Part shown: positions 3,024 through 64,000 of the stretch, piece by piece | Numbering within the stretch: position 1 is the first letter of the stretch | How the letters are laid out: each line of letters starts with the position of its first letter | Source: Malassezia japonica | Taxonomy: Eukaryota; Basidiomycota; Malasseziomycetes; Malasseziales; Malasseziaceae | Assembly: GCF_029542785.1 (NCBI RefSeq) | Contig: NC_083370.1 | Coordinates: 248,001 to 312,000, forward strand | Direction of reading: 5' to 3' | Length of the DNA stretch: 64,000 nucleotides | The notes under the pieces: model-generated | Database searches by the model: none | What the model was told of the DNA's origin: nothing | The model's input: only the letters and a program-made list of their open reading frames with translations | Position numbers and translations under genes: made by a program

Positions 3024-3477
3024 ATGGACGCGGCGGTGGACGTGTATGCCGTGCTGGGCGTAGCAAGCGATGCAGACGCCTCGACTGTGCGCACGGCCTA
3101 CCTGAACCTTGTGCGCACCGTACGTTTTCTTTCTGACGCAGAACCACCCCGACAAGGCGCACGGCGACGAAATTCCGGAGCGCATCCGGCTGATTAACGC
3201 CGCGTACGAAACGCTGCGTGATCCCTCGGCGCGCGACGAATACCTCAAGCGGCGTGCAATCTACCTCGCACAGAACCAGGCTGCGCGCCCTCCGCGAGTC
3301 GCAGACACAGTCGACATTGATGCATTCGACGTCGTGGGCGATGGCGACGCCATGCGGTTGGTCTATCCCTGCCGGTGTGGGCAGCAGTACGTGCTCTGTG
3401 CCACCGACTTGGTCGAGTACCTGGAATGCTCAGGGTGTTCGGAAGTGATACGGGTGTTGTACGATAGTGAGGACTAG
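3024..3477 (+). CDS. DPH4: Diphthamide biosynthesis J-protein Dph4/Jjj3
   Basis: 143 aa from two exons, 3024-3119 and 3142-3477. The 22-nt intron (3120-3141, GTACGT...CTGACGCAG) lies just before the HPD motif, so splicing rebuilds the J-domain: exon 1 ends in the helix-II sequence AYLNLVRT and exon 2 opens NHPDKAH. The C-terminus is a DPH/CSL zinc finger, YPCRCGQQY followed by LECSGC. J domain plus CSL zinc finger is diagnostic of Dph4, which supplies electrons or iron to the Dph1-Dph2 step of diphthamide synthesis on eEF2. The convergent SUMO protease ends 5 bp downstream. Confidence 0.9.
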
Positions 3478-3482
3478 GGTAT

Positions 3483-6056
3483 CTACTCAAGCAATCGCTT
3501 CGATGCAATCTCACAGGCCATGCGGCGGCGGAGATACGGCATGTGTTCCTGCGCAAAATTCCACGCATAGTCGTCCGCGTGCGCCTCGCGCTCTGCGCGC
3601 AGAGCCTTGGCGTCTGCGGGGCGGTCAAAGAGCGCTGCACTCAGGGGCGCAGGCATCGCTTCAAGAGGATCGCGCCGGCTGAGTTGCTCGAGGGTCTGGA
3701 TGGCAAAGACGCCGCAGTCGTAGCCGTTGGCTTGCTGCGGCGACGTGTCGCCTGCAAAAAAGTCCTCCCAGTCGCTCAGGTCGAGCGTGAGCTGATGCTT
3801 GGCCTTGAGCTCATCGGCCAGGTAGCTCCGGAGCGTCGCAAAGACGTTGGGGCGCGCAATTGCCATACTGTCATAGTACTCAAAGCGGCGCAAGCGCAGG
3901 TTGATCGCAGCACAGACCCAGTGGGCTTGCCCGAGGTTAATTGGGAGTAGAATCAAATCTTTTGTAAAGAGATCGACACGCCGTGACCACCGCTGCACGC
4001 CTTTGTAGCCTTGTGACTGCAGCTTTTGCCAGAAGAAGGAGGAGAAAAAGTGAACCGACCAGTAACCACAGCAGTCGGCTGGCGGCGCCTCGTTCTTTTC
4101 GCGGGCTGTGCTGCGCTTGGCTTCGGCGTCATTGGCGCGCTGCATAATCAGATTGCCATAAAAGTTGATCACTTCGTCGTTAAGCCATTGGCCGGGGCGC
4201 AGCTTAGCCAGGTCGTGCGATTCAACTTGCGCACCGGTCATGCTAGCAATCACGCCACGTTGCTGGAACGTCGAACGCACCTGCGCTTCGAGCGCATCAG
4301 GGAGGCCTTGCGGCAGCGACTTGCGGCCGAGAATGCCGTGCTCTGCACGCCGCTTGGCACGCTCCGCACGGAGCGACGCAAGGCGCTCTGCCTCGGGGAC
4401 TGCGCGAGGAGGGAGACGTGCGCGCGCATGCGCTTCACGCGCGCGTAGCGCATCGAGCGTACGCTGGGTATAAGCCTGCTCGTCGAGTTGAGGGGCATGC
4501 TTCGGATGGACGCGCAGAGTTTCCAGGTCCAAGAGGTGCTGGACATGCATGCGCTTCTTCACCAGGCCATGGAAGTCGTCAAAGGCAGCAGGCGACTTGT
4601 GGCCGTGCACAATTGCACGGTACGTATCGTAGATCATCGAAGCGATACGTGCTTGTTGCCGGCTTTGTATTCCAGCCTTGAACTCCTCATGGGCAAGAGG
4701 TGCTTTGCGGCGCGTGCTTAGCGATGAGGCAGGGCGGGATGGGTGGCGCATATCGCGGGCCTGGAAGCCCATGCGCTTTGTCGACGGCGCAATACGAAAG
4801 AGACGCTTGGGGATGGGGGACGACACAGAGAGCGAGGCATAATTTGGACTGAATTGAGACTTGCGCTGAGGTTGCAGAGAGAGGGATGTAAGTTCTTGGG
4901 TAGGAGGAGGGGGTGAAGGTTTGCGAGGGGGAGGGGGTGGCTCGTCGTCGGAGTCGTCAATGACGACGACCTCGGGTGAAGAGCGGGGCTGGGAAGCAGG
5001 TGGGTGGGAAAGGGTGTTGGTGTCTTTTTCTTCATCCAATTCGTCATCGTAGTTGTTGACTTTTTCTTCTTCCTCTTCCTCTTCCTCTTCCTCTTCCTCT
5101 TCCTCTTCCTCTTCCTCTTCCTCTTCCTCTTCCTCTTCCTCTTCCTCTTCCTCTTCCTCTTCCTCCTCTTCCTCCTCTTCCTCCTCTTCCTCCTCTTCTT
5201 CCTCCTCATCCTCGTCCTCCTCCTCTTCTTCCTCATCCTCCTCTTCATCCTCATCTTCCTCCTCCTCTTCCTCCTCCTCTTCTTCCTTCACGTCATCCTC
5301 TTCTTCATCTTCTTCCTCCTCTTTCTCATCTTTCTCCTCTTCCTCCTCTTCCTCCTCCTCTTTCCTCTCATTTTCCGAGTCTTGCTTTTCATAGTCTTTT
5401 ACATTGTTTGCATTTTCATTGTTCGCCGTTTTTCCTTTGTTCTCGGCGGCGGTCGTGCTCATAATGGTATGGTCGTCATCAGCAAGTCCGGCACGAATCA
5501 CTTGTGTTTCTTGAGCGTGTGGTGCACCATAGTGCATCCGCTCATCCACATCCGTACGTAAAGTTGTAGGCGCAGGATCGGCCGTAGGCTTATCCTCCGT
5601 GGCAGGAATAGAGTTGACCGCATCCTTTTGCAGATTATCCGCAGCCGACTCAGAAGAAGCATAAAGTGGCGCATCGTTCATCTCGGTTGCTTCCTCTTTG
5701 TCGATCTCTTCGGCGACTTGTGCCATAGAACCAGAGGTGATAGCTTCGACCGCATCCGCGAGCGCCGCGCTTAAATTAAACTCATGATTTTGTGTATCAT
5801 CCCGTTCGGACGCTTGTGACAACGACGGCTTCACATCATCCACATTGTTTTGGGCCTTTTCAACCTCTGTTGCACTAGAGGGTGGCATTTCTGCCTGCGG
5901 CGCCGACTGGCGTTGTCGCTTCCGGCCGGGGCGCACGACTGCGTCGGCAAGTGCCCGGAAATGGCCCCACCACCGGTCAACTAACCTTGGACCGGGTTCG
6001 CTCGAGGCCTCTGGGTATGTGCTCGACTCTGTCGAGGCACGCATCCGCTTCGTCAT
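3483..6056 (-). CDS. ULP1: Ulp1-type SUMO protease with a very long acidic tract
   Basis: 857 aa from the first in-frame ATG (6056). The open frame extends upstream to 6110 only by a GTG. The C-terminal C48 peptidase domain begins LRPGQWLNDEVINFY; the triad is His in QAHWVC (about 712), Asp in YYDSM (about 729) and Cys in YDCGVF (about 781). It would cleave SUMO from substrates and mature the SUMO precursor. The N-terminal half is low complexity. Residues about 225-330 are nearly pure Glu/Asp, encoded by a polypurine tract on this strand, and Pro-rich and Ser-rich stretches follow. No intron seen. It is divergent from ECD, with 83 bp between start codons. Confidence 0.88.
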   Translation of the reverse strand: MTKRMRASTESSTYPEASSEPGPRLVDRWWGHFRALADAVVRPGRKRQRQSAPQAEMPPSSATEVEKAQNNVDDVKPSLSQASERDDTQNHEFNLSAALADAVEAITSGSMAQVAEEIDKEEATEMNDAPLYASSESAADNLQKDAVNSIPATEDKPTADPAPTTLRTDVDERMHYGAPHAQETQVIRAGLADDDHTIMSTTAAENKGKTANNENANNVKDYEKQDSENERKEEEEEEEEEKDEKEEEEDEEEDDVKEEEEEEEEEEDEDEEEDEEEEEEDEDEEEEEEEEEEEEEEEEEEEEEEEEEEEEEEEEEEEEEEEEEEEEEEEEKVNNYDDELDEEKDTNTLSHPPASQPRSSPEVVVIDDSDDEPPPPPRKPSPPPPTQELTSLSLQPQRKSQFSPNYASLSVSSPIPKRLFRIAPSTKRMGFQARDMRHPSRPASSLSTRRKAPLAHEEFKAGIQSRQQARIASMIYDTYRAIVHGHKSPAAFDDFHGLVKKRMHVQHLLDLETLRVHPKHAPQLDEQAYTQRTLDALRAREAHARARLPPRAVPEAERLASLRAERAKRRAEHGILGRKSLPQGLPDALEAQVRSTFQQRGVIASMTGAQVESHDLAKLRPGQWLNDEVINFYGNLIMQRANDAEAKRSTAREKNEAPPADCCGYWSVHFFSSFFWQKLQSQGYKGVQRWSRRVDLFTKDLILLPINLGQAHWVCAAINLRLRRFEYYDSMAIARPNVFATLRSYLADELKAKHQLTLDLSDWEDFFAGDTSPQQANGYDCGVFAIQTLEQLSRRDPLEAMPAPLSAALFDRPADAKALRAEREAHADDYAWNFAQEHMPYLRRRMACEIASKRLLE
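5061..5370. repeat. TTCCTC hexamer microsatellite within a 300-bp polypyrimidine tract
   Basis: On the + strand this stretch is almost entirely C and T. About 16 perfect tandem copies of a TTCCTC hexamer run from about 5067 to 5165, then about four CCTCCTCTT nonamers, then degenerate CTT/CCT triplets. It lies in the coding region of the SUMO protease and encodes the Glu tract on the minus strand. Unit lengths of 6 and 9 keep the frame through copy-number change. Long homopurine-homopyrimidine stretches with mirror symmetry can form triplex DNA, a general property that is not shown here. Confidence 0.95.
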
Positions 6057-6139
6057 GCCAGGCACGCCTGCCCCCACACTACACGCCGCGGTGGTGGAAA
6101 GACGCGACACGAAGCATACACGCCTCCATCGCCTCCACC

Positions 6140-8561
6140 ATGGAGGAGCGGCCAGACGAAGCGGGGGAGCGCGCGGCGGTCTTTACCGCGACGCTCGTGC
6201 CGCCTACGGCGAATGTGGCGGGCCTCGAAGCGCAAGTGGTTCAGGCCATTCATAATTCATGCGCTGCATCGCTGCCGGAGGGTGCGGGTGGGTACTTGTG
6301 GCACCGCGAACCGCCCGTCGTTTCGCAGGGTGGCGACGAACACCCTGCAGGCACGCTGCAAGTGTCGATGCGTGTCCAGGATTGTGTCGAGGACGAATGG
6401 TTCATGACATATATTTTGCGTGCACTCACCGAGCGCATTCCTGGCCTGTGTGTGCGCGTCGAAGACGAGGACGGCGAGTTTCTTCTGATCGAAGCGGCGA
6501 ACGAGCTTCCCAAGTGGGTGCGTCCAGAGAACGCAGAGCGTCGCGTATGGATTTGTGATGGTATGCTGCATCTTGTCCCGCTCGAATATACCACGGATGA
6601 ACCGCACGACGAGGACTTGGAGGCGTACCTTTCTGAAAAGGATGCCGTCGCTCTGGTGCGCAGCAAGGAGGTGACGACGCAGGCGCCGCGCGCGGTCCAG
6701 GACGCTGCGTTTGCCCGTCTTGCAAACTACCCAGCTGCGGCTGCTGCGCATCAGCACCGTACCATTGCTGTGCTGCCATGGTCGGTCGCAAAGCTCATTG
6801 TCTCGCATCCCCAGCTCATTGCCGAAGCCGTGCATGCGCTCGCGACGCGCGACGTGGTGAGCGCGCGGGCGGCACAGAACCCGTCGCTCTTCCCGATTAC
6901 GCCTAGTGACGCGGGCGAGGCGCCGGCGCAGGACGTCGTGCTTCTTCCGGTCAAGATGACCCGGCACCTCTATGCCCAGCTGTCCCACGACCGTTTCTTT
7001 CCCCCGAAAGCGTACGGGAAGCGCTGGCAGGCGGCTGTGGAGCGCTATCGACTGTACATCAGTGGCGACGACCAGAAACAGTCCAGCGTTAGCGACGAGG
7101 AGGCGCGGTTGGGCCGGTGGTGCGACACCGGCGCCAAGCTCACCGCCGGCCTGGAGCTCGCGTGGGCCGCCAAGAGTGCACGCGGCGCGAATGCAAGCCA
7201 AAGCCACACCCGGAAGGACGACGATGCGTTCATCCACGCGCTGTCCAATCTGGGCTACTTTGAGGGCGAGACGCCGCACTCCAAGCGCTGGAATGAGCTC
7301 GCTCAAGAAGCACGCAGCATGGCACCGTCTGCGGTGGATCATGACGATACATTGAGCGAGCTGCGTAGTCTGCGGCAGACTCTGCATGCGCCGCCGAGCG
7401 AGCAGGCCCAAGCCGCCGCGCTTCCGTGGTCGGACGTTGAGCAGCACCGTACGGCAGAAGACGACGAGGCGTGGCTTTCGATGGCGCCCGAGGAGCTCGA
7501 TGCTATCGCGCAGCCTGGCGGAGGAGCCGAAGACAATACGGTGGACCGGCTCGGCACCTTTATGACCAAGATGAACGAGTTCCTACAAGGCGAGGGCGAC
7601 GTGGAAGGCGCCATGTTCCAGGACGATACGTTTGACGATGGCGAGGAGCCTGAGGACGATTCCGAGGACGACATGAGCGAAAGCGAAAAAGCCCGGCGCA
7701 TGGACGCCTTGGTCGAGCCAGTGCCGCTGTCGGAGTGGGGCGCAGCGAATGCAGAAAAAGTGGCGGCGCAGCAGGATGGGAAGATACAGTCCGCGCCGGT
7801 ACCGGCACCGACCGAGCTGCAGCCGCAACAATCAGGGACCCGCCTGCAGGGCTTGTCTGGACACGAGCACTACGAAGGCGACAGCGATAGCGAGGGGTCT
7901 TTACAGGGTGACGAGCACGATCCCGAGGACGAGCGCAGTGACCGCCGTCGCTGGCTCGAGCTCAAGGAAGAGGACGACGATGTGAATATGGAGAACGAAA
8001 TGCCGGCGTTTTTGGAGTTTACCCGGAAAGCACTAGGGCTCAGTGACGAGCAGTACGCGCAGATTCTGGACGAGCGCCGCGGGCGTGGAGGTATGTTGTT
8101 CTACTTATCCAGCCTATGTCCCCGAGATGCGCTCTGTCGAGAAAGAGCGCACGGACGATGTGCCAAGCGTTGCCGAGGCGCGCGCTTCTCCCGTGCAGCG
8201 TCAGCCGAACGAGAATATCGACTCTTTTGACGCCGTACTGGAGGCTATGGAGAAGGAGCTCGAAAAGGAACGTGCAAAGCAATCTCCTGTCCCAGAGCCC
8301 GCTGACATGGACGTCGACGAGGACGAACTCGACGAAGAAGATGCCGAGTTGCTGCAGCACTTGCTGGCTTCTGGCAACTCGATCCCCGAAAGTCTGCAGC
8401 ACTTTGCGCGGACACACGAAGCAAGCAGCACCGATATCAATGCGCTCGGCAGCTTCCTGGAAAGCTTCAAAGCGCAAGCAGGCCTGCCAGGGCCGGTGAG
8501 CAACCTCGCCGGCCGCTTGGGCGTCGGAGCTCTGCCACGCGACACCGATTCGCTCGAATAG
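6140..8561 (+). CDS. Ecdysoneless (ECD/SGT1) family protein
   Basis: 799 aa, exons 6140-8090 and 8113-8561; the intron (8091-8112) is 22 nt with a GTATGT donor. Start is the first ATG of the frame (MEERPDEAGE), after the divergent protease start. The family signature is in the N-terminal third: EFLLIEAANELPKWVRPEN, then RVWICDGMLHLVPLEY. The C-terminal third is acidic, as in family members. ECD proteins are tied to pre-mRNA splicing (Prp8/U5) and p53 stability in animals, and to transcription in fission yeast (sgt1); the fungal function is not settled. This intron's branch region (CTACTTATCCAG) departs most from the local consensus. A CACGTG at 8563-8568 sits right after the stop. Confidence 0.85.
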
Positions 8562-9949: not shown

Positions 9950-10678
9950 ATGAGTGCAGCGCTGGAGGCGAGCGGCGGCGCGGCGCCCGGTGCCGCGCAG
10001 CTGCCGTATACTGATGCACTGCCCTATTATGACCAAGAAATGGAGACGATTCCCGGGCTGCGTGCGGCGGTCGAGGCGGAGATTGAAGGAGAAAAGAGCA
10101 AGCTGAACTACGATCCCATCTCTCTGCTCCCCCCCGCCCATCCGCTGTTTGCCGAGAAGGAGACTTTTGCTGCAGAGCTTGCTCGTGCCGAGCGTGGGGA
10201 AAAACTCGACGTGCTTGACACGTCTCGATACCAGCTCCCCCCCCCGCCGGCGGTCTCGATGCCTCGGAAGAGGCGTGGGCGTCGAGCGTGCAAAACGCCG
10301 AGGTGCAGCTCGCGCACATGGACGGCCGCCTGAAGAACATTGAGCTGCTGCGGCGCTATGGACGTACGTCACTCGACTCACACAGCGAATGTCTGGCGCT
10401 TGCACAACTATAACCAGGACAGCATGCTCCAGCTGCAGACCGGCGCGCACGAGACGACGCGGGCGGCTTCGGACGACGTGAACCGCACACGCAAAGAGGC
10501 GCAGCTCGCGATCGGCGACAAGCTCTCGACGCTCGAGTCGCGCTGGGCCGCGCTCGTCTCCAAGAACCTCTCGATCCGCGCCGCGAACCTCACCGCGGCC
10601 GCCGAGACCGCCGAGTACCAACGCAAGTCCGAACAACTCCGCCGCGAGTTGGCCGAGATGGATGCCGCGGCTGCATAG
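9950..10678 (+). CDS. Pre-mRNA-splicing factor SPF27/BCAS2/Cwf7 (apparent frameshift)
   Basis: Component of the Prp19 (NineTeen) complex. The N-terminus (TDALPYYDQEMETIPG...DTSRYQLPPPP) and the middle (AWASSVQNAEVQLAHMDGRL, then NIELLRRYG) are both BCAS2-like but lie in different frames. They meet at a run of nine C (10237-10245); one extra C would give QLPPPAGGLDAS and a continuous frame. A 22-nt intron (10364-10385) then joins RRYG to PNVWRLHNYNQ. Exons 9950-10363 and 10386-10678 plus one base give 235 aa. The C-terminal coiled coil (VNRTRKEAQLAIGDKL, WAALVSKNLSIRAAN) is typical. Convergent RRP15 ends 26 bp away. Confidence 0.82.
10237..10245. other. Nine-C run at the SPF27 frame break
   Basis: The two SPF27 frames meet exactly at this homopolymer. 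Adding one C restores the frame. No consensus splice sites flank it. Confidence 0.8.
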
Positions 10679-10704: not shown

Positions 10705-11497
10705 CTACGTAGACGTGCCCTTGGGCGCACTGCGTAGCAGATCCAAAAAGTTGCTTTTGCTCAGCTCGTTGACCGCGGCTTCGGTGTTGCCCAGCGCATT
10801 GGTCTTGCTGCTCTTGCGCTTGAGTGCGCGCGCCTTGTCCACGTCGTCGACCGACGTCTCCTGCGCCGCGCGGATCGCGTTGAAGAGCTTGACGACACCG
10901 CGCTGCGCAACCTTGCGCAGGCGGCGCTCGTACCCCTTGGCGCCACCCTGCTCCATCCACTCCACGTTCTGGGGCGTGTCGAGAGCCAGGTTGTGGCCCG
11001 GGAGGACGCCCGGCGGCCCCCACTCGCCGATCACGTCGCGGACGTGCGCCTTTTCCTCGCGCTCGCGGCGCTTTTCGAGTGCCATGCGCGCTGCCTTGGC
11101 GCGCAGCGTGGTCGTGTTGGCCGTGCGGCGCACGCTCGGCGCCAGCGACAGAATCGAGCTCGGCGCCGGGGCCTCTTCCTTGGTCTGCCCCAGGAGCCCC
11201 TCGAGCGTCTCACCAAAGGCGGTCGGAGATACGGCCCTACGCTTGCGTTCTGTGTTAGCCAAGAGACTTACTCGATGTCTTCTTGCTCGGCCCACTGCCC
11301 TGTGTCTCGATTTCCTCGTCCGTGTCGCGTTCGTCGTCGGAGCCGCTTGCCTCCTCCTCGTCGCTTACTTCGTCTTCAAACTCATCCGTAGGCTCTTCGA
11401 TGATCCTAGTACGCTTCTCATTCTTTCCGTCCGCCGCTCCCTCGCCCTTGAGCGACAGACGCAGCTTGGACGCACCCGGCGCCTGCTTCTGCACCAT
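10705..11497 (-). CDS. RRP15: Rrp15-like ribosomal RNA processing protein
   Basis: 256 aa, exons 11272-11497 and 10705-11249, with a 22-nt intron (11250-11271) using the only GTAAGT donor I found in the window. The acidic N-terminal region (EEPTDEFEDEVSDEEE) leads into a basic helical part with the Rrp15 signature RRLRKVAQRGVVKLFNAIRA. Rrp15 acts in the nucleolus in 60S pre-rRNA (27S) processing. The first ATG (11497) gives MVQKQAPGASKLRLS. It is divergent from LSC2 with 130 bp between starts, including a CACGTG at 11546. Confidence 0.85.
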
Positions 11498-13554: not shown

Positions 13555-14450
13555 CTATGGTGCCCTTCGGAAGGCCACGGTCGTGACGGTGGAGCCTTGC
13601 TGGCCACCCTGCGTGAGCGGCGCGACGTACAAACATAAAGGTCGGCGCGGGGACGACGTGCTCCACCGCAAAACCTGGCATGAGAAGAATAAACGTACCG
13701 GCGGGCAAAAATTTACGCTCCAACTCCTCTTGAGTAAAGTTGCAGCTGGTAATGAAAAAGATACCCGAGAGGGCATGCTCGCTTTGGGGGCGGGTCAGCG
13801 CCGCCACCGCTTCCACATAGAGATCCACAGGCAGCTTGCCATTCACAGGCTGCGACGAGAGCGCAATCTAGGTCAGTGTTGAGACATACAGCGTCAAACT
13901 GCGTTAGACCGTATACGTACCGTGCCTTTGTCGCACACAATGTCCCAGCCGAGGCCATCGTTCCCACTCTGCTTCAGCGTCAAGACCGTCGCGGGGTCGC
14001 GCAGGTCTGCCTCTTCAAAAATCACCGCGTCGCATCCTTCGCCGCGCGTCGCGCCGATGGCTTGCGAAAGCTTGACTGAGGCAGGCGAGTAGTCGACGCC
14101 GCACAGACGCGCCGGCTCGAGCGCTTCGTCGCCCAGCTCATCGCGCGCGTCCAGCAGCGAGAAAAGGAGGTGGCCGTTGCCAGTACCGAGATCCAGCACA
14201 AAGGGAGGCTGCTTAAACGGATCCTCCTCGAGAAACTCGACCAGGTACGCAATCATGCGCTCCACACTGTCCTCGCCAAACCTGCGTCAGGACGGGCACG
14301 TACCACACTTCGCCTTCGTCGCCGATTGCTTTGTACGTGTCGACCTCGCGCCTATATTAGCGCAATAACATACTCATAGACACTGTCCCAGTGCTCCTTG
14401 GTGCCGAGCCGAGACTCGGGCAGTTCCTCTACCACTCGTGCCTCCGCCAT
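13555..14450 (-). CDS. EFM4: eEF1A lysine methyltransferase (Efm4/METTL10 family), six exons
   Basis: 261 aa from six exons: 14374-14450, 14304-14351, 13921-14281, 13890-13898, 13631-13867, 13555-13608. All five introns are exactly 22 nt. The spliced product opens LPESRLGTKEHWDSVYE, then GDEGEVWFGEDSVERM. The SAM site is VLDLGTGNGHLLFSLL, followed by LCGVDYSPASVKLSQ. The catalytic-side motif is DKGTFDAIALS, in which FDA comes from a 9-nt exon. FFITSCNFTQEEL and PTFMFGGQQGSTVTTVAFRR complete the METTL10 pattern. The enzyme methylates a lysine of elongation factor 1A. The exact closure of six exons (786 nt) supports the model. Divergent from the BNA7-like gene, 37 bp between starts. Confidence 0.93.
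13890..13898 (-). other. Nine-nucleotide microexon of EFM4
   Basis: Encodes FDA of the conserved DKGTFDA motif. It is flanked by two 22-nt introns (13899-13920 upstream, 13868-13889 downstream), each with a GTAYGT donor and a CTAAC/CTGAC-NNAG end. Skipping would remove three residues without changing frame. Confidence 0.85.
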
Positions 14451-14487: not shown

Positions 14488-15559
14488 ATGGCCCATTCGC
14501 AGGTGCACAGGGACGTCGCATACGGCTCGGCGCCGCGCCAGACGCTCGATTTGTACCTTCCGAATACGGCCAAGGCAGAGGAGAGGGCTCCGCTTTTGGT
14601 ATTTGTGCATGGGTACGTAGCGGCGCTCATCTAGCGGCGCATGGCGCACCGGAAACAAGGGCGAATTCGACGACCTGGCCAGTGCGCTGAGCGGCAGCGG
14701 GATCGCGGTGACCCTCATCGAGTACCGTCTGTCGGAAAAGAGTGCGCCAGACGTAAAGCATCCGGACCACGTTTTGGACGTGTTTGCAGGGCTCGCCTAC
14801 CTTGTGGAGAACGTCGGCAAGCTGCCGTACGATGCAGACAACGTGACGCTCGTCGGGCACTCGGTTGGCGCATGGATGGCGCTGGCATGTGTCATGGAGC
14901 CTAGCTCGACCGGACATGCACTACCCATGCCGACCTTGGCCCCTGTCGCTCAGCAAGCGATTAAGCGCGTGGTGTTGGTCGTAGGTGCCGCATACTGACA
15001 CAGGACGGAATCTTTGACCTAAACAAACTATTGGAAGAATATCCCGACTATGCGGGTTTTGTGGCCGGTGCCATGCAACCCCACTCTGACGCAGACGACG
15101 TGTATACCGGCGTCTCGAGCGGGGCGTGGTCGTGGCCGAAAGGTACCAAAGCACGGCCGGACCTGTTCCTACTGCATTCGCCCCAGGACGAGCTGCTGAG
15201 CTTTGTGCAGCCCTGCGTCCTGCTGGAACGCCTGGTGGCGCTGCGTGAGCCACAGGAGCCCGTGCACGCCATCTCCATCCCCCAGCCTGGCCTATCGGAC
15301 GAAGCGCCGGGGTACTGGTACGGCGGCCGTGCCGGTGATCCTGCGGCGGTGTCTGTCGCGCACATCTATCAAGGGTCACTGCACAACATTCCCCAGCACG
15401 TCCAGGTGTATATGGACCGACTCGAGGTATGCGCCACAGTCCGAATACGCGATACTGACACTGCATTTACAGGGATCGCATGATGACCTGCTGCACACAC
15501 AAACATTTTGGAACATGCTGCAAGCCATTGCTCGCAGCGAGTCCATACAAGATAGATAG
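14488..15559 (+). CDS. Alpha/beta hydrolase, probable kynurenine formamidase (BNA7-like)
   Basis: 326 aa, exons 14488-14612, 14635-14980, 15004-15426, 15473-15559; introns 22, 23 and 46 nt. Splicing creates the oxyanion motif VFVHGGAWRTGNKGEFDDLA across the first junction. The nucleophile elbow is LVGHSVGAWMA, and the His is in GSHDDLLHTQTF at the last junction. The order HGGAW, GHSxGA, SHDxL fits arylformamidase of the kynurenine route from tryptophan to NAD, but other esterases share it. The third intron (46 nt) has TACTGAC separated from its ACAG, unlike the short class. An in-frame ATG also exists at 14449, overlapping the EFM4 start. Confidence 0.72.
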
Positions 15560-17851: not shown

Positions 17852-19311
17852 CTAACTCTGCTTCGCTGCCGTAATGGCCTGTGTAAAGGCCGTGAGGCGG
17901 CTCTGCACATAATCCTGCGTCAGATGGGAGACGTACCTGGGCCACCACAGCGAGTGCGCCTTCAATCACGTCGCACATTGCCTGTTCCACCCACGCGTTG
18001 TTCTCGAGCGGGACCGAGACTGTTGTCAGCAAGTAGTACGTACGCCACCAGGCAGGGATTGCCTGCGAGCACGTCGCGTGGCTCAGGCGGTACGTCGGGT
18101 CGACCCACCACACCAAAAAGGACACGCTGCGCTTGTCTTTTTGGAAGGAAGCCGGCGGCTCGGACGCACCAAAGAGGTCCGCATCGCTACCCGGAATAAT
18201 CGCTTCGTAGAAGGGCTGCAGACGCAGCACGATGGGGCACGTCGAGTCGGGCACCATCATCTCATTCTCCTGCTTCTCTTTGGGGGCGGGCACGGCCTGC
18301 GCAAGCGGCACAATTGCCGCCTTGGCCTCGGCAATGCCTGCCTCGCGGCTCGCCGCAATGTGCAAAGCATGGGCGGGCAGCTCGTTCGACGCATCGCCAC
18401 TTGCCGCCGCCATGTGCACGTCGACTTTGGTAATATCAGCCTGCTGCAACATGCGGGAGAGCACCTTAAACGCAAGCGTCTCGATGCCATCGTAGCCAGT
18501 CATGTCTGTGTAAGTTGGGCGACGTACCGTGGCTGAGCGTCACATCCACCGACTCGTGCGCTTCCATGGGAGGCGCAACCGCGCTCACAATATCGTTCCA
18601 TCCCCGGCGGCCGGCCGCCGTCAGGTTCTGGCCCAGCGACTCGAGGCCCGCGTCGCGCACGAGACCCCGGAAGCCTTGCGCAAAGCGGTTGCTAATATCG
18701 TGGATGGGCTGCTCGAGCGCAGCGGCGGGCGCAGTGACCTCATTCGGTGCTTTTTGCACAACCGCCGCTGCGCGTCGCTCCAGCTCGTGGCGCGCCTGGT
18801 CGGCAAAGCGTGTCGCATTCGAAAAGAGGCTGCCGCCCCACTGGCCCCACGAGCTCGCGTTTTCGGCAGCAGGTTCGGCAGGCTTCAGTTCAGGCGCACT
18901 CGCCTCTTTTGGCTTGGGCGCCTCTTGTGCTGGTGCAGGCGGCGGTGGCCGCGTTTCGGCTTGCGCCGGCGCCTCGGCCTTGAGGCTCGGGCCAGGACTC
19001 GGCGTGGAGAGCGGCTTGGGGCTCAGTACCTGCGAGTTCTGTGTACTTGGGCTCAGCGCGCTCCGTCCAGATACGCGACGCTCCGGCGTGCCACGTACCG
19101 ACAGGCCCTGCGGCTCACGCGGCTCGCCGTGCGACCGGCGACGCTGCACGAGTCCCTCAAGATCATCGAGCAAACTCTGCACATCTTCGCCGCCTTTTGT
19201 CGCTGGGCGGTGGCTAGGACGAGGCGCACCTTGTCCCGTGGTTCCCGGATTAGATTCGAACGACAAATCAGCCAGTAGTGCGTCGACGTCTTGCTTCCGT
19301 TGCGCACTCAT
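17852..19311 (-). CDS. Mtc1-like protein (maintenance of telomere capping 1 family)
   Basis: 463 aa if three introns are removed: 18506-18527 (22 nt), 18020-18043 (24 nt, stop-free and a multiple of three) and 17915-17936 (22 nt). The start MSAQRKQDVDALLADLSFES at 19311 is preferred; an in-frame ATG at 19359 also exists. A repeated DVxxLLxDL motif is followed by a Pro/Ala-rich linker, SSWGQWGGSLFSNATRFADQ, then a conserved C-terminal domain with RLQPFYEAIIPG and FLVWWVDPTYRLSHATCS. The layout resembles fungal Mtc1 proteins, whose molecular role is unclear (genetic link to telomere capping and COPI/ER). The family call rests on memory of the pattern. Confidence 0.62.
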
Positions 19312-38034: not shown

Positions 38035-38442
38035 ATGAAGGTCCATGTGCGAAAATGGCACCCGGTGGCCTACTGGCGTACGTCGTGCCGCTGACGCAGA
38101 CTGGGACGTGCGCGATCCAGACGATGTGTGTGGTATCTGCCAGAACTACTTTGACGGCGTGTGCGGCGCATGCCGCGATCCGGGCGATGCGTGCCCGCTC
38201 GGTACGTCGCCCCGCTGACGCAGCTTTTGGCGAATGCAGCCACGAGTTTCATCTACACTGCATCATGAAGTGGCTCTCTGAGAAGCGCGAGCCGCTGTGC
38301 CCAATGTGCAAGCGCCCGTGGGGTACGTTGCGCGGCTCACCCAGTGGAGGCCACGCCGGAACACTTTCAGGACGCGCCGCGCGCGCCGCGTGCATCGGGC
38401 GCGCCAGGCACGCCTGCGGCGCCCAACGGATACCATACGTGA
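38035..38442 (+). CDS. APC11: Anaphase-promoting complex RING-H2 subunit APC11
   Basis: 113 aa, exons 38035-38077, 38100-38201, 38224-38322, 38345-38442; three introns of exactly 22 nt. Spliced sequence: MKVHVRKWHPVAYWHWDV, then DDVCGICQNYFDGVCGAC, then CPLAFGECSHEFHLHCIMKW and PLCPMCKRPW. The extra Cys residues of the APC11 RING-H2 are present. It is the catalytic RING partner of the APC2 cullin. The start at 38035 matches the usual MKV beginning; an in-frame ATG at 38005 would add ten residues. A Pro/Ala-rich tail of about 30 residues after the RING is unusual. Confidence 0.92.
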
Positions 38443-49006: not shown

Positions 49007-50177
49007 TTACACTGGCGGCGCCATAGTATGCTCTCGTACCTTGCGGCACACCCAAAATACAGGGCGGTACTGATGCGCGAGCATGCTCGTGGCGCTTCCC
49101 GTATACGCCTGCGCCGGCAGCATCGCGAGCTCCTCGACCTGGAATCCGAGCTGGGGCAGGAGCGCGAGGATTTCGTCGAGCGTAAGCTCGATGCTTGGCT
49201 CGGCGTCGTGCTCAAAGTGCCACAGGAGCGGCCCGAGGTTTGCCCAGATGCCGCCAATCGGCAGGAGTGCGTTGATGACCTCCATGTACCGCAGCGCATT
49301 CTTGGCCGTGTCCAAAAAGTAGCACGTCGACACGACGTCCCACGCCCCGTGCTCCTCCTCTTTTGCGTACACCTCGACAAACTCGCCTGCAACCATGCTA
49401 AACTCGGTGCCGGGCGCGATGCTCGACGGAAGTACGTCTGGAACCGGGACGCCTTCGAGCAGGTCGGCGGCCGTGCGCCAGTTGCTGTGCGAGTGAATGT
49501 ACGGGTAGATCACATGCTGCGCCACCTTTTGCGTATTGTTCAGGAGGAAGTGCGAGGGGATCAGCATAAAGTAGCTAAACTCGTTGCCTTGCGTGCTGTA
49601 TCCTCGCAGCGCGTACTCAAACGCCAGCCGCCCGAGGCCCGCGCCGGGTACGAGAATATGCACGCTCGAGGGATCCTTCTTGACGTAGCGCTCGACTGCA
49701 TCGAGCAGCGGCCCGTACGCTGCCTCGCGCTCTGCGCGGCCCGCCTCGCTCCAGTCGCGCGCAATCTGGCGCAGCGCGGTACGCACACGGTCCTGGTCGC
49801 TCTCGGACACGGCATGCTTGTCGGCCACCTCGCCGTTGGCCTCTGAACCGAGGCCGAGAAAGTTGCGGCAAAAGTCGGCGACCTGACTGAGCACATCGGC
49901 GTTCCGCCGAATACGGTCGTCCACCTCGCCGAGCCGCGCACGCACGCCGCCACGCTGCGCGGGCACCTCCTCCTCGAGCACCGGCGCTGGGAGCGGCGTC
50001 TCCAAGTTCCGCAGCAGTGCCTGGTGCGCCAGAGGCAGGTTGCAGATTGCCGCGCGCCGAGCATTGTTCACATGGAGCTGCGTCAGTTGCACGACCTACC
50101 GCATACTGCAAGTACTCGTCCCACGCGCGCAGGACCTTGTCAAAGTGCGCCTGCTCTTCCGCGTCGCCCTCGCTCAT
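49007..50177 (-). CDS. Carnosine N-methyltransferase-type protein (N2227 family)
   Basis: 382 aa, exons 50100-50177 and 49007-50077; 22-nt intron with GTAGGT donor. Exon 1 starts MSEGDAEEQAHFDKVLRAWD and splices YLQYA to LHVNNARR. Family motifs: LRQIARDWSEAGRAEREAAY, the SAM site VHILVPGAGLGRLAFEYALR, GNEFSYFMLIPSHFLLN, and WDVVSTCYFLDTAKNALRYM. CARNMT1-type enzymes methylate histidine-containing dipeptides and some proteins; the fungal substrate is not established. Divergent from TAPT1, with only 30 bp between start codons. Confidence 0.9.
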
Positions 50178-52325: not shown

Positions 52326-53505
52326 ATTCTTGCGTGGCCGTCCGCGCTTGCGGGGCGCGGGTGATGCGGTCGGCGTCTCGGTCGCGGAGGAAATTGCCTC
52401 GGGCTTGTCGCTTTCTGCCTTGGCCTCGGGCGACTTGGCCTCGGGCGACTTGGCCTCGGGCGACTTGGCCTCGAGCGACTTGGCCTCGGGCTTGGGCTTG
52501 GGCTTGGGGCCGGGCTTGGCTTTCGGCGGCTTGGGCGGCGCGGGCGCCTTGGATGCGAGATGGCGCAGGACGATAGGCAGAGCAAGGATCATGTACAGGA
52601 CCAGCGCACTGACCGCCTTGGCCTCGCGCTGCGACAGGTAGGGCAGGCTGTGGATGTGGCCGAGCGGCTTTTCCTTGTCGACGATCGACGGATGCACCGC
52701 AAAGAAGCGGCTCAGGATGCTTGTCGTCGCCTGTCGCACCGGCGCCGCCTGCAGGAACGCAAACGAGCTCGAGGCCTCTGCGCCGCTGGTCGTCAGGCAG
52801 AGGAACACGAGCGGGACGACCGCGCCGCCGAGCAGGTCGGGGTACAGCAGCAGCGACGGGTTAAACACCCACGGCGGCGTGCCGAACGACCACAGACCCG
52901 TCGGCGAGTTCAGGTGAAAGACGCCGACGAGCAGCGGCACGCCGCCGCTGAGCAGTGCGCCGACAATGAGCTGCGCAAAGAGCGAGTGCGCGACGGCAGG
53001 ATTCGTGTGCTGCTTGACCTGCGTCAAGGCGTAGTTGGCGATGGCTTCTGAGCGGCACACGGCATCGACCGCCGCAAGACCGAGGTCCATTGCAAGTGCC
53101 AGTGGGCTGGCGTGCGCACGCAGCAGTGCGCTGCCGACGCCCGAAAAAAAGAGCACCGCATGGACCAACGAGTAGAAGCCCACCGACAGCGGCGAGATGA
53201 GGATCGGCAGTGGCGCGCCCAGCAGCAGCGCCACAACTGTCGAGCCACCAAATAGCACAATCAGGTTCAAAACGAGGCTCTGAAAGAGGCGCAGACGCGA
53301 TTGCGTGCCTCCGCTCAGGAGACGCGTGCCATGGCTGATGCGCACCGCATGGATCAGCGAGAGGACTGCGATCGGGGCCTGCGTTAGCGCGCCAACATAC
53401 AAATGTCGAGTGGATATGCGTACGGGCAAGCACCTCGGTCAAGTCCGCTGCCGTTGCGAGAATGTACGAGGCAAAGATTGGGTCGCTCGACGCGACCTCA
53501 GCCAT
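52317..53505 (-). CDS. Multi-pass membrane protein, TRIC-channel-like, with repetitive KSPEA tail
   Basis: 388 aa, exons 53401-53505 and 52317-53378; 22-nt intron joining HIHSTF to APIAVLSLIH. About seven hydrophobic segments in the first 310 residues (RLFQSLVLNLIVLFGGSTVV; LPILISPLSVGFYSLVHAVL; QLIVGALLSGGVPLLVGVFH). The segment NSPTGLWSFGTPPWVFNPSL resembles the late loop of TRIC cation channels, and the topology fits, but the match is from memory. The C-terminus is Lys/Pro/Ala-rich with tandem KSPEA units and ends in an AT-hook-like RKRGRPRK, odd for a membrane protein. It ends 9 bp inside the TAPT1 gene. Confidence 0.55.
52421..52491 (-). repeat. 15-bp tandem repeat encoding KSPEA units
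   Basis: About four and a half copies of a 15-bp unit (GGCCTCGGGCGACTT on the + strand), nearly identical, near the 3' end of the TRIC-like gene. One unit has a C-to-A change, giving KSLEA. Confidence 0.85.
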
Positions 53506-56276: not shown

Positions 56277-57713
56277 ATGGCAGACGCTGGTGCAGAGGCA
56301 CCCTCCCGTGTATATTCACGACACACACTACTGCGCCTTTCACAAAGCCCGCTCGTTCATGTCCCCGACGGCACGCCGCCGTTTGACGAGTGGTATGGGT
56401 ACGTCGCTCGCCTAACGCAGTGCCTGGCGGCCGTATACGCCCCGCGGGCTGGGTAGCGGCATGCACGACATGCCCGGCAAAAGAGAGATGCGCCAGCGTC
56501 GCGGCGATGGCCGCGGCGAGCCGCTTTCCGACGGATCGCGCCGCTTCCCGACGCCGAAAGGCACGTTTGTCCCTGCGCCGGCGCCCCGCCGGGGGGGGGC
56601 GAGCAAGGGCGAGGAGCGCGCGCGCCGCGGCGAAGAGGTGCGCGATCTTGCGTGGCGCCGCACCGGCGAGGAGCGTGGAGACATGCCCGCGTGGATGGCC
56701 GAGGACGCGGGCACGCCGCGCACTCCTGGAGGGCGCGTAGACAGCATCCAAGAGTTCAAGGCGCAGCTGCGTGAGCGCGAGCGCCGCGAGAAGGGCGAGC
56801 CGGAGCCGGAGCAGGCGCAGCAGCGGGGCATGTACGAGGACCTCGCGCAGCCGGAAGAGAGCGACGGCCACTCGAGCCGCTTCGCCAAGTTCTTCCACTC
56901 CGACCAGGGCAAGGGCGATGCACAGGCCAGCAACCAGGCCGCAGTCGAGATCGACCTCTTTTCGCTGCTCTCGGGCAAGAAGGAGCAGAAGCCATCGAGC
57001 GCCGCGTCGACGCCGGCCGCGCCCGCGCCTCCGGCACTCGCACCGGCACCGAAGCAGGCCCCGAGCGCGCCGCAGACGCCGCAGGCCGCGCCGGCGGGGG
57101 GCGCGCCGAGCGCCGCGGACATGGCGAGCATGCAGATGCTCATGGCCAAGCTCATGGGTGGCCGGACGCAGTCGCCGGCCGCTACGCCGCCGCGCGCGTC
57201 GTCGGGCACCGCCACGCCAAGTGCGCCGCCGAGCGGCGCTCACGGCTCGCCGGCTCCGGCAGCGCAGGCCGCGCAGAACGCCCCGAGCCAGATGGCGCTC
57301 TTTCAGCAGCTCCTCCACCAATCGAGCCGCCCGCGCGACGGCGACGGCGCCGGCGCCGGCGCGCCGCCCGGCCTCGGGGGCGGCGGCTGGCCGATGGCGA
57401 TGCCGCGTCCAGGTGCGCCGCCCGGCGGCCCTCATGGCGCCCACCCCGGCGGCCCTCCTGGCGGGCCGCCGGGCCTGTACGGTGCGCCGCCCGGCGTTCC
57501 CCCCCAGGGCTGGCCGGGTGCGCCGTACGATCCGCGGCGCCCCCCCCAGGCCTCGGTGCCCCCCCCGGAGTGGCCGCGCGTCCGCCCGGCGCCCCCCCGG
57601 GCCTTGCGGGAATGCCAGGTGCGCCGCCCGGCATGCATCCCCCCCCCGCCATGCCGTATGCGTTCCCCGGCCACGCGGTGCCTCCTGGCTGGATGCCCGA
57701 GCGGCGTGAGTAG
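56277..57713 (+). CDS. eIF4E-binding protein, 4E-T/Eap1-like (apparent frameshift near 3' end)
   Basis: Exons 56277-56398 and 56421-57713; 22-nt intron joining EWYG to AWRPYTPRGLGSG. The N-terminus has RVYSRHTLLRLS, a canonical eIF4E-binding YxxxxLL. A Gly/Arg-rich segment follows, then DLAWRRTGEERGDMPAWM, HSSRFAKFFHSD (resembling the SSRF element of 4E-T) and a long Pro/Gly/Ala-rich tail. Past 57540 the frame loses the PPG pattern; one extra C in the run at 57540-57547 (or 57559-57566) restores GAPPGVAARPPGAPPGLAG through PPGWMPERRE and a stop at 57713, giving 471 aa. Such proteins repress translation in P bodies. An ATG at 56250 would add nine residues. Confidence 0.62.
57540..57566. other. 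C-runs at the 4E-T-like frame break
   Basis: Two runs of eight C (57540-57547 and 57559-57566). One added base at the first gives the most natural Pro/Gly reading. Without it the frame ends in a Cys/Arg-rich tail at 57726. Confidence 0.65.
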
Positions 57714-57745
57714 TCGTAGACTGTGAATGCATCTTCTACCTCCTG

Positions 57746-61409: not shown

Positions 61410-61504
61410 GGATGCACCTCGCCATTCTTATTTACACGGCCATAGGCACAGCCATTACTACTATTCTGAAATGTAGTTGCGCTACGCACTAACTACGAAA
61501 GAAC

Positions 61505-62153: not shown

Positions 62154-62313
62154 TGTGGTAGTCGAAGTTGGGAGGGAGCCGTTGCCACTCCCCGCACTGT
62201 TAAGTCCATGGCCCCTGCGGCCGGGCCAGAGGCCGTCGGACCCGGCATCCAACCAGAGGCCAGCAAATGCGTTTCTAGAAGCCCGATCACTTCATACGTC
62301 ATGACGAAATCGC

Positions 62314-62319
62314 CACGTG
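62314..62319. promoter_or_regulatory. CACGTG palindrome upstream of SOD2
   Basis: GCCACGTGGGTG in the 236-bp gap between the SOD2 start (62153) and the RING-gene stop (62390). Confidence 0.4.
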
Positions 62320-62389
62320 GGTGCACGGACGCCTAAGGGCGCCGGGCGCAGGGCGTTGTGCGCTGTGCACGGAGCAGCGGCGGAAGGGG

Positions 62390-63473
62390 CTATTCGCTAT
62401 CGTAGTCATCACTTGCCTCCTCGGCCTCGGGGTAGTCGAGCACGCCCTCGTCGTCGCTCTGCTCCAGGTCCGAATTGGCGTCCGAGACGGCGTCCGAGGC
62501 CGTGCCAGAATCGGCCTCGCCGATTTCCTCGCTCTCCTCCGAGCTCGGCTCGCGGATGCGCGCTGCGTTGCCGTGTCGGCGCGCGCGGGCGGCGCGCAGC
62601 TCGTCGAGACGCGACTTGCGGGTATTGGATTCAGACATTGTCCGATGGCTCTCGTCAGGCGGAGGCGAAACACTGACAATGCCCGAGTCGGACGACGCAT
62701 AGTCTCCTTGCGATGCGGCATCGTCATCATCGACGACAAAGTCTTGAAGGGACCCCTCTTCGTCGCTATCATTCGCTTCCTCTTCAGATTCGTGATTCAC
62801 CGCCTCGGAGCGGTGCCACGACGCCTCGTCTTCGGTCAGATCTTCGTAGATCACGCCACTGCGTTAGTAATGCGACGTACCATTCCGGATTGGAACACTC
62901 TCCCTCAAGGATCTCGCTCGAGCATACACCACACCGAAGCACGCCGTCATCCTCGTCGCGAATGACATGGTAAAATGTCGCAGGGTCAAAGAGGCCTGTG
63001 TGAGCCGAGTAACGTACCCTCCCAAAGGTCCTGGCTGATGGGGGGCGCATCACGCTGACTATTTGTGCTTTCGCGCAGCGCCTCCAATACGCCCTTGAGC
63101 GCCCATAGCTCCAGCGGCGGCGTCACGACTTGCACGCGACAGCTCGGGCACACCTTTTTGCGGCGTACCGTTCCCCGCTGCTCGTCTTCTTCGTTTACAT
63201 GCATCTCCACCTTGAACCAGGATACGAGGCAGTTGGCACAAAAGATATGGCCGCACGGCGAGACGCTGCGTGAGCACAATAGACGTACACGCATGGGCGG
63301 TCGAGCAGCTCCATGCAAATGCCACAGAGCAGCCCATTCTCCACCTTGGAAAGCGTCGCATTGGCACGAGCCAGTTCATCTCCTTCGCGTCCTAACTGAA
63401 TGCCCTCGTCCTCTGAAGAGTCGCTAATCACCTCGACGGTGCGCCGCCGCTTTGGCGCGTGTCCCCCCGCCAT
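62390..63473 (-). CDS. RING-finger protein with second Cys cluster and acidic tail
   Basis: 338 aa, exons 63289-63473, 63018-63265, 62881-62995, 62390-62858; introns 23, 22 and 22 nt. The spliced RING reads LLCGICMELLDRPCVVSP, then CGHIFCANCLVSWF and KKVCPSCRVQV. The next segment has FYHVIRDEDDGVLRCGVC and GECSNPECGVIYEDLTEDE, perhaps a second small metal site. The last 120 residues are acidic, with an internal basic RKSRLDELRAARARR. Probably an E3 ubiquitin ligase. The RING context recalls CHFR/RNF8 types, but no FHA domain is present. An in-frame ATG at 63506 would add 11 residues. Confidence 0.75.
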
Positions 63474-63510
63474 GGCGTTCTGCGCGTCGCGTCGATTCCT
63501 CCACATATAT

Positions 63511-63527
63511 CACGTGGCGTACACGTG
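63511..63527. promoter_or_regulatory. Paired CACGTG sites, RING-gene/SUB2 divergent promoter
   Basis: Two perfect CACGTG copies, 63511-63516 and 63522-63527, eleven bp start to start (about one helical turn), in the 110-bp spacer between start codons at 63473 (-) and 63584 (+). Confidence 0.5.
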
Positions 63528-63583
63528 CCGCAGCGTGCCAGTCGTCGCCTTCTTCCCCGCTACCAACGTGCAGCATTGAGAAG

Positions 63584-64000
63584 ATGGACAACGAGGAGTA
63601 GGTGTGAAGCGCGACGTACATGCTGACCGCAGTCTTATTGATTACGAGGAGGAAGTGACTGTGGCTCCCTCCACCGGCACCACCACCGAGACCACGACCA
63701 CGACCACGGCCGCGGCGGGTGAAGAAAAAGACAAGAAGGGCAGCTACGTCGGTATCCACTCGACGGGTTTCCGTGACTTTTTGCTGAAGCCCGAGCTGCT
63801 CCGTGCGATCAGTGACCTTGGTTTCGAGCACCCCTCCGAGGTGCAGCAGGAGTGCATTCCCCAGTCGATTCTCGGCATGGATGTGCTTTGCCAGGCCAAG
63901 TCTGGTATGGGTAAGACGGCCGTGTTTGTGCTTGCCACGCTGCAGCAGATTGAGCCGGTCGACGGCGAGGTGTCGGTCATTGTCATGTGCCACACGCGTG
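63584..64000 (+). CDS. SUB2: DEAD-box ATPase Sub2/UAP56 (3' partial)
   Basis: Exon 1 is 63584-63597 (14 nt), the intron 63598-63632 (35 nt, GTAGGT donor, CTGACCGCAG end), and exon 2 runs off the window. Spliced start [18 protein letters not shown], a Thr-rich linker, then [40 protein letters not shown] (Q motif), and motif [29 protein letters not shown] rather than AQTGSGKT is the Sub2/UAP56 form. It acts in spliceosome assembly and TREX-mediated mRNA export. Only the first 125 or so residues are visible. Confidence 0.93.

What the first reader, a model, noticed from the sequence alone, without database searches (positions are those of the whole stretch)
3120..63632. A dominant class of exactly 22-nt introns with branch site fused to the acceptor
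Of 55 introns I could place by frame closure, 30 are exactly 22 nt and 44 are 30 nt or less. Most 22-mers fit GTACGT-N7-CTNAC-NCAG, putting the presumed branch A at position 17, only 5 nt before the exon. Examples: 3120-3141, 14282-14303, 20881-20902, 38078-38099, 53379-53400. Comparable minimal introns are known in ciliates (Stentor, Paramecium) and chlorarachniophyte nucleomorphs; the usual fungal minimum is longer. A spliceosome that handles a fixed 22-nt unit with a 16-nt donor-to-branch gap must differ sterically. This is the most striking system in the window.
Basis: partly seen in the sequence, partly recalled or inferred. Interest (0 to 1): 0.92.

Follow-up and report, generated by a model that had tools for sequence, protein, structure and literature searches.

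The report
Exactly 22-base introns in a Malassezia
This skin-yeast genome is full of what look like real introns squeezed to exactly 22 bases, apparently the smallest size its otherwise ordinary splicing machinery removes, and such introns seem to break public gene models of its relatives.

Summary
The window lies in an 8.43 Mb, nine-contig genome, inferred to be a Malassezia (closest named proteins 84% identical). GTACGT-N7-CTNAC-NCAG occurs 20 times in the window (0 in 100 shuffles) and 1,784 times genome-wide, against 0 for the reversed pattern. A gene finder with flat length prior and no branch model put 53 of 149 introns at exactly 22 nt and none at 14-21. Homologues support 17 of the window's 29 22-nt sites, five in one EFM4-like gene.

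The length appears set by two floors: donor to presumed branch A never under 16 nt in 137 unambiguous introns, branch to 3' end mostly 5 nt. U2 and U6 are canonical; SF1, a U2AF65-like protein, Slu7 and Prp18 are present. So this looks like the major spliceosome at minimum size; 'must differ sterically' is not supported. Stentor reaches 15 nt with the same 5-nt branch-to-end spacing (PMC9505925).

Gaps in public Malassezia models fall within one residue of these junctions in 18 of 28 events, suggesting ultra-short introns shared in the genus and missed by annotation. No RNA data were available.

The parts
3120..3141 (+). 22-nt intron in a DnaJ/CSL-zinc-finger gene (DPH4-like), phase 0
   Evidence: strict motif; junction at residue 32 inside DnaJ match 6-66
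8091..8112 (+). 22-nt intron
   Evidence: frame closure; no homology test
10364..10385 (+). 22-nt intron in a BCAS2/SPF27-like gene
   Evidence: strict motif; junction inside BCAS2 match 20-208
11250..11271 (-). 22-nt intron
   Evidence: frame closure; no homology test
13609..13630 (-). 22-nt intron 6 of the EFM4-like gene
   Evidence: strict motif; spliced product ends like the homologues
13675..13698 (-). 24-nt in-frame intron 5 of the EFM4-like gene
   Evidence: 7 of 9 Malassezia homologues and one smut lack the 8 residues it would encode, a second smut lacks 5, the other two Malassezia models end earlier; motif and coordinates
13868..13889 (-). 22-nt intron 4 of the EFM4-like gene
   Evidence: relaxed motif; conserved DKGTxDAIALSSQ restored
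13890..13898 (-). 9-nt microexon (codons F-D-A) between two 22-nt introns
   Evidence: motif conserved in Tilletia and Thecaphora
13899..13920 (-). 22-nt intron 3 of the EFM4-like gene
   Evidence: strict motif
14282..14303 (-). 22-nt intron 2 of the EFM4-like gene
   Evidence: strict motif
14352..14373 (-). 22-nt intron 1 of the EFM4-like gene
   Evidence: relaxed motif
14613..14634 (+). 22-nt intron in an alpha/beta-hydrolase gene
   Evidence: frame closure; junction inside the BD-FAE match
17915..17936 (-). 22-nt intron (alternative 34-nt end at 17903 also closes the frame)
   Evidence: strict motif
18506..18527 (-). 22-nt intron
   Evidence: strict motif; frame closure
20579..20600 (+). 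22-nt intron 1 of calcineurin A
   Evidence: gapless alignment to 6tz8_A across residue 163/164
20713..20734 (+). 22-nt intron 2 of calcineurin A
   Evidence: gapless alignment to 6tz8_A across residue 201
20881..20902 (+). 22-nt intron 3 of calcineurin A
   Evidence: gapless alignment to 6tz8_A across residue 249/250
30317..30338 (+). 22-nt intron of proteasome beta-6 (PSMB1/PRE7)
   Evidence: gapless alignment across residue 51
31396..31417 (+). 22-nt intron of a ubiquilin/Dsk2-like gene
   Evidence: junction inside the ubiquitin-family match 14-83
31823..31844 (+). 22-nt intron of the same ubiquilin-like gene
   Evidence: frame closure; outside the Pfam matches
35576..35597 (+). 22-nt intron
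   Evidence: frame closure; no homology test
37495..37516 (-). 22-nt intron
   Evidence: strict motif; frame closure
38078..38099 (+). 22-nt intron 1 of APC11
   Evidence: alignment to solved APC11 across residue 25
38202..38223 (+). 22-nt intron 2 of APC11
   Evidence: alignment to solved APC11 across residue 59
38323..38344 (+). 22-nt intron 3 of APC11
   Evidence: alignment to M. vespertilionis APC11 across residue 92
39953..39974 (+). 22-nt intron of a kinesin gene
   Evidence: junction at residue 467 inside Kinesin match 227-560
50078..50099 (-). 22-nt intron of a carnosine N-methyltransferase-like gene
   Evidence: frame closure; outside the Pfam match
53379..53400 (-). 22-nt intron
   Evidence: frame closure; no Pfam match for the protein
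56399..56420 (+). 22-nt intron
   Evidence: strict motif; frame closure
62859..62880 (-). 22-nt intron of a RING-finger gene
   Evidence: strict motif; frame closure; outside the Pfam matches
62996..63017 (-). 22-nt intron of the same RING-finger gene
   Evidence: strict motif; frame closure; outside the Pfam matches

Best explanation
These are ordinary U2-type GT-AG introns of a Malassezia, shortened to the smallest size its major spliceosome accepts. Shown by sequence: two distances have floors, donor G to presumed branch A (16 nt) and branch A to last intron base (mostly 5 nt, rarely 3-4), and 22 nt is the intron with both at or near the floor. Inferred: U1 then U6 read GTACGT; SF1 and U2 read CTNAC (branch A at 17); U2AF has no room for a tract downstream of the branch in a 22-mer, so recognition probably rests on the strong donor, the branch motif and a weak pyrimidine stretch upstream of the branch; after branching, the first AG downstream, 5 nt away, is taken as the 3' site. 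Deletions drive introns down to the floor and splicing failure (a frameshift, since 22 = 3n+1) removes anything shorter, so lengths pile up at 22.
For: Spike at exactly 22 by motif and by a finder with flat length prior and no branch model. Floors: donor-branch under 16 in 0 of 137 introns with a single branch candidate and 0 of 147 when the candidate nearest to 5 nt from the end is chosen; branch-to-end under 5 in 7 of 147, equal to 5 in 107 of 147; (16,5) in 72 of 147. First AG after the branch used in 141 of 147, and in 73 of 73 of the 22-nt class. Homologues across junctions: calcineurin 3 introns, APC11 3, proteasome beta-6 1, EFM4-like 5, and, more weakly, five junctions inside Pfam matches. 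Canonical U2 and U6, SF1, U2AF65-like, Slu7, Prp18. Positions 9-12 pyrimidine 219 of 304. No U12-type donors, 0 of 169.
Against: No transcript, lariat or protein data were available, so splicing and branch positions are inferred. With a consensus-first rule for choosing the branch, 3 of 147 introns fell below 16, whereas no intron with a single candidate did. The two distances are not independent: distance 5 goes with distance 16 in 72 of 80 but only 35 of 67 otherwise (Fisher p = 2.9e-7; 68 of 76 against 32 of 61, p = 1.7e-6 without ambiguous introns), which a simple two-floor model does not predict and which could mean 22 is a preferred unit rather than only a minimum. U1 snRNA was not found. 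Stentor's lower donor-branch distance (PMC9505925) shows that 16 is not a universal physical limit, so the floor must be specific to this lineage.
Confidence: 0.85

Rival explanations
1. 22 nt is an optimum, not just a floor: this spliceosome recognises donor and branch-acceptor as one spaced unit (16 + 5), and neighbouring lengths are spliced less well.
For: 22 nt outnumbers 23 nt about five to one by relaxed motif (79 to 15). The two distances are coupled. In Paramecium bursaria, introns of 23-26 nt are spliced best and both shorter and longer ones less well (PMC12862383, passages).
Against: Many introns of other lengths up to 60 nt carry the same donor and branch motifs (74 non-22 against 73 of 22 nt with a branch motif), and the letter before the branch A is no weaker in either class. 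A pure floor with deletion pressure also gives a steep pile-up.
Confidence: 0.3
2. Chance or artefact of composition: GT...CT.AC..CAG words in a GC-rich genome with frame closure by luck.
For: None found.
Against: 0 in 100 shuffles; reversed control 0 against 1,784; flat-prior, branch-blind finder recovers the same length and motif; homologues need the splices.
Confidence: 0.01
3. Recently spread copies of one mobile intron (introner elements) of fixed length.
For: Fixed length and fixed ends.
Against: 74 distinct N7 cores among 76; flanks no more alike than shuffled ones (mean 15.7 of 60 against 15.6, max 31 against 29). Public models of several other species break at the same junctions, which suggests shared old positions.
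Confidence: 0.02
4. A different excision route (U12-type spliceosome, tRNA-type or Ire1-type splicing, or translational frameshifting) removes or bypasses the 22-mers.
For: Very small size; 22 = 3n+1.
Against: GT-AG ends, CTNAC branch motif and canonical U2/U6; 0 of 169 U12-like donors; the same signals occur in introns of other lengths up to 60 nt.
Confidence: 0.02

Closest known systems
Introns of other Malassezia species
   Same: Described as very short (PMC7426719, passage); M. restricta mean/median 37.2/30 nt (PMC9241646 Table 1), annotated with minimum intron length set to 15-20 (PMC6473144, passage). Public protein models of several species break at the same junctions as here.
   Different: M. 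globosa annotation averages 76-79 nt (PMC4634964, passages). I saw no statement of a 22-nt class; three Malassezia papers that I asked for by recalled DOI were not held.
Stentor coeruleus tiny introns
   Same: One dominant exact length (15 nt, 92.8%), fixed branch A (position 10) and so the same 5 nt from branch A to the last base (PMC9505925, passages).
   Different: Stentor: AU-rich, no strong branch consensus, donor-branch distance 9, Slu7 and Prp18 not found in its Table 1. Here: 22 nt, 55% GC, strong motifs, distance 16, Slu7 and Prp18 present.
Paramecium introns
   Same: Narrow distribution around 24-25 nt, U2-type GT-AG (PMC12862383, passages).
   Different: A spread of lengths (groups 15-22, 23-26, 27 and over in that paper) rather than one spike at a single length.
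Yarrowia, Giardia and Trichomonas introns with branch site anchored next to the AG
   Same: Branch motif at a constrained distance from the AG, no 3' polypyrimidine tract (PMC2483917, passages).
   Different: Yarrowia introns are long and these genomes intron-poor (same passages). Here shortness and strong consensus are combined, whereas that paper reports that short-intron lineages tend to degenerate signals (abstract).
Bigelowiella natans nucleomorph introns
   Same: About 19 nt, minimal introns (named in PMC2483917, passage).
   Different: A different lineage and genome type; not compared further here.

Membership tests
U2-type (major) spliceosomal introns | GT-AG ends | tested here: met
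   Acceptor CAG 69 and TAG 4 of 73 in the 22-nt class; GT and AG were required by the finder, so the independent test is that such frames match homologues
U2-type (major) spliceosomal introns | Branch motif complementary to U2 GUAGUA | tested here: met
   CTNAY in 147 of 152 introns of 60 nt or less, one position in 71 of 73 of the 22-nt class; U2 carries GTGTAGTA
U2-type (major) spliceosomal introns | Removal from mRNA with a lariat | not testable with these tools
   No RNA data; supported indirectly by homologue alignments
U12-type introns | RTATCC donor | tested here: not met
   0 of 169 called introns begin ATATCC or GTATCC; AT donors were not searched by the finder, so the ATATCC half is uninformative
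Introner elements | Copies share sequence beyond splice signals | tested here: not met
   74 distinct cores of 76, flanks at shuffled level
Ciliate-like ultra-short intron systems (works like) | One dominant length at the minimum with fixed branch position | tested here: met
   (16,5) in 72 of 147
Ciliate-like ultra-short intron systems (works like) | Slu7 and Prp18 undetected, as reported for Stentor | tested here: not met
   Slu7 E 2.3e-91, Prp18 E 1.7e-18

The most novel reading that the evidence does not exclude
In this genus the spliceosome has a built-in ruler: donor and branch-acceptor are read as one unit of fixed spacing (16 + 5 nt), so 22 nt is the preferred substrate and not only the minimum. 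Branch-to-end spacing of 5 nt has converged with Stentor, and second-step factors Slu7 and Prp18 are kept only for the minority of introns with longer spacing.
Probability: 0.25. Interest if true: 0.8.

Novelty: new variant of a known kind. Interest (0 to 1): 0.62.

Why it matters
It gives a fungal genome in which the minimum geometry of splicing can be read from over a thousand natural motif matches (donor-branch 16, branch-end 5), and in a culturable yeast (recalled) rather than a ciliate. The shared 5-nt branch-to-end spacing with Stentor makes the question of what limits the second step testable. Short introns here keep strong motifs, against the reported trend for short-intron lineages. 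In practice, gene predictors appear to skip such introns: several public Malassezia models of calcineurin and EFM4 drop exons, delete a 9-nt microexon or run into the next gene, so protein sets of this genus may need re-annotation; models of M. sympodialis EFM4, both APC11 proteins and two of five calcineurins showed no such damage.

Tried and rejected
Idea that 22-nt introns compensate a weaker branch motif through fixed spacing: rejected, the base before the A is purine in 49 of 73 of the 22-nt class and 53 of 74 of the others.

Idea that U1 carries a compensating base opposite donor +4 C: not settled. Rfam U1 gave nothing, and rang in none of the control genomes either, so it says nothing about absence. 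ATACNTACCTGG gave 7 sites, none with T at the N; none of the 7 shows U1-like downstream features. TACCTN{8,38}ATCAYGAAG gave 3 sites, as many as its reversed control, and none has a U1-like 5' end.

Idea that Slu7 and Prp18 are lost because the branch is so close to the AG: rejected.

PDB comparison of the EFM4-like protein found nothing at E 0.01; homologues were used instead. Frame-closure calls miss introns of length 3n without a stop (the 24-nt one at 13675-13698 shows it), so 24, 27 and 30 nt are undercounted; the motif-only counts do not have this bias. The branch rule favours candidates 5 nt from the end; only 10 of 147 introns had more than one candidate, and results hold without them. 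Literature searches for a 22-nt class; two searches returned no paper, and in the other listings I saw no title or abstract start that describes one, which does not show that it is unpublished, since most subscription papers are not held. An earlier count said 11 of 11 homologues lack the 8 residues of the 24-nt intron; the right count is 8 lacking eight, 1 lacking five, 2 ending earlier.


Full report
What the window is. The window is bases 248001-312000 of contig 1 of a genome of 8,433,779 bases in 9 contigs. Its calcineurin A has its best named relatives in Malassezia (sp. CBS 17886, M. brasiliensis and M. arunalokei, each 84% identity) and its EFM4-like protein in M. sympodialis (65%). I infer a Malassezia species; which one I cannot say.

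The 22-nt class is real and genome-wide by motif. The strict pattern occurs 20 times in the window with 0 in 100 shuffles, and 1,784 times in the genome with 0 for the same pattern read backwards. Letting donor-branch and branch-acceptor gaps vary gives 2,782 matches against 78 for the reversed pattern, so about 64% of them sit at the one length; of the first 100 listed, all on contig 1, 64 are 22 nt, 8 are 23 nt and one is 21 nt. In window plus 200 kb, GTRNGT...CTNAYNYAG pairs number 79 at 22 nt, 15 at 23, 4 at 24, 8 at 25, and 0 at 22 in reversed sequence. Scaling by 53 strict to 79 relaxed suggests roughly 2,700 such sites in the genome (inference).

A length-neutral test. I wrote a Viterbi gene finder with a coding model, weak generic GT-AG weights, a flat prior over 12-300 nt and no branch model. 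It called 149 introns; 53 were 22 nt, 13 were 23 nt, none were 14-21 nt, one each was 12 and 13 nt, and the 22-mers printed nearly all carry a CTNAY-N-YAG ending although this was not asked for (first 40 shown). It also called a thin scatter at 100-300 nt that is probably mostly false. After learning signals it called 169 introns in 163 genes, 76 of 22 nt, two of 21 and one of 20. Of 141 introns of 60 nt or less with good motifs, 72 are 22 nt, the median is 22, the mean 24.8, and 125 are 30 nt or less.

Homologues support the junctions. Calcineurin A aligns without a gap to a solved calcineurin (6tz8 chain A) across all three 22-nt junctions; APC11 aligns across two in the solved protein and across the third in the M. 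vespertilionis protein; proteasome beta-6 across one. In eight further proteins, 5 of 10 22-nt junctions lie inside Pfam matches and 5 outside; this is weaker evidence. The EFM4-like gene has five 22-nt introns and one of 24 nt; the last was found because the homologues that reach that point lack residues it would encode (7 of 9 Malassezia and both smuts aligned; the other two Malassezia models end earlier). Spliced, it is 253 aa, the length of the M. sympodialis protein. Two of its 22-nt introns enclose a 9-nt exon coding FDA, within a motif conserved in the two smuts aligned. In sum 17 of 29 window sites have homology support (12 by alignment, 5 by Pfam only), 5 were tested by Pfam and lie outside matches, and 7 lie in proteins I did not test.

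Relatives' gene models break here. I aligned all 16 Malassezia-named rows that I identified in the three listings (5, 9 and 2 proteins). In calcineurin, 3 of 4 gap events of three or more residues lie within one residue of a 22-nt junction; in EFM4, 15 of 24 (after leaving out the 8-residue gap caused by the 24-nt intron still in my query); binomial p 4e-4 and 1e-9 (the events are not fully independent, since relatives may share them). Of the other 10 events, six come from models that run into the next gene past the last junction. APC11 shows no event in 2. In all, 5 of 16 proteins show none (P0001, P0015, P0121, P0241, P0242). In seven non-Malassezia proteins aligned as controls (2, 2 and 3), 0 of 7 comparable events lie that close. 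M. psittaci, M. globosa and M. nana models jump from residue 26 to 42 of EFM4, dropping the 48-nt exon between two short introns; M. pachydermatis, M. furfur, M. globosa and M. cuniculi models lose three residues at the microexon; M. furfur, M. psittaci and M. sp. CBS 17886 models carry a ribosomal S8 domain. My own finder made a like fusion (compare). This suggests the introns are shared in the genus and too short for the predictors used; DNA of those species was not available to check, and their intron lengths are unknown.

Geometry. With D1 the distance from the first intron base to the presumed branch A and D2 from that A to the last base: D1 is below 16 in 0 of 137 introns with one branch candidate and 0 of 147 when the candidate nearest D2 = 5 is taken; a consensus-first rule put 3 of 147 below 16. 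D2 is below 5 in 7 of 147 and equal to 5 in 107; (16,5) holds for 72. D1 = 16 goes with D2 = 5 in 72 of 80, other D1 in 35 of 67 (Fisher p 2.9e-7; p 1.7e-6 on unambiguous introns). The first AG after the branch is used in 141 of 147. Longer introns are longer mainly between donor and branch. Positions 9-12 are pyrimidine in 219 of 304, a weak tract upstream of the branch.

Machinery. U6 is canonical around ACAGAGA and U2 around GUAGUA. Slu7, Prp18 and SF1 are over family cut-offs. The U2AF65 model matches positions 32-460 and 460-505 in neighbouring pieces, below its curated cut-off in this intron-blind search; it rang weakly at many other places and in 2 of 14 control genomes, as expected of a model holding RRM domains. 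A protein of PF05971, the family that holds METTL16 (recalled), is present (E 6.1e-41), but that family also rang in 5 of 14 controls. U1 was not found. Prp8 and branching factors were not examined. Nothing tested demands an altered spliceosome.

Mechanism and comparison. The best reading is the major spliceosome at its lower size limit, with deletion pressure piling introns onto the floor. Stentor's 15-nt introns have their branch A at position 10, again 5 nt before the last base, while Slu7 and Prp18 were not found there (PMC9505925, passages). Recalled, not from a call: in budding yeast Slu7 is needed mainly when the branch lies far from the 3' site. Here both factors remain, in keeping with the minority of introns with D2 above 5. 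Short-intron lineages are said to tend to degenerate signals (PMC2483917 abstract); this genome combines shortness with strong signals.

Limits. No transcript data; branch positions are motif-based; the catalogue outside the motif counts covers 264 kb; frame closure undercounts lengths divisible by three. The eleven papers fetched were seen only as passages, with the abstract and outline of PMC2483917 besides; four papers asked for were not held, so a published description of this class may exist.

Noticed in passing
EFM4-like gene, minus strand from 14450: Public EFM4 models of M. furfur, M. psittaci and M. sp. CBS 17886 carry a ribosomal S8 domain, and M. brasiliensis, M. nana and M. cuniculi models are short and named as a phospholipase D; many of their gaps fall at the 22-nt junctions.
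   Followed up: yes
13890-13898: A 9-nt exon flanked by two 22-nt introns; a 15-nt exon flanked by two 22-nt introns also lies at contig 1 63965-63979.
   Followed up: partly
donor sites throughout: The commonest donor is GTACGT (54 of 73 of the 22-nt class), with C at +4, opposite the U6 ACAGAGA adenine that METTL16 is known (recalled) to methylate; a PF05971-family gene is present.
   Followed up: partly
13850-13889: The EFM4 intron at 13868-13889 has a second possible CAG acceptor 18 nt downstream (at 13850), an in-frame alternative that would drop six residues.
   Followed up: no
5041-5360: Long Glu-coding (GAG/GAA) repeat tract within the minus-strand ORF 3483-6110, seen in the raw sequence.
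   Followed up: no
9950-10678 (+): A BCAS2/SPF27-like gene, itself of a spliceosome-associated family (recalled), carries a 22-nt intron.
   Followed up: no
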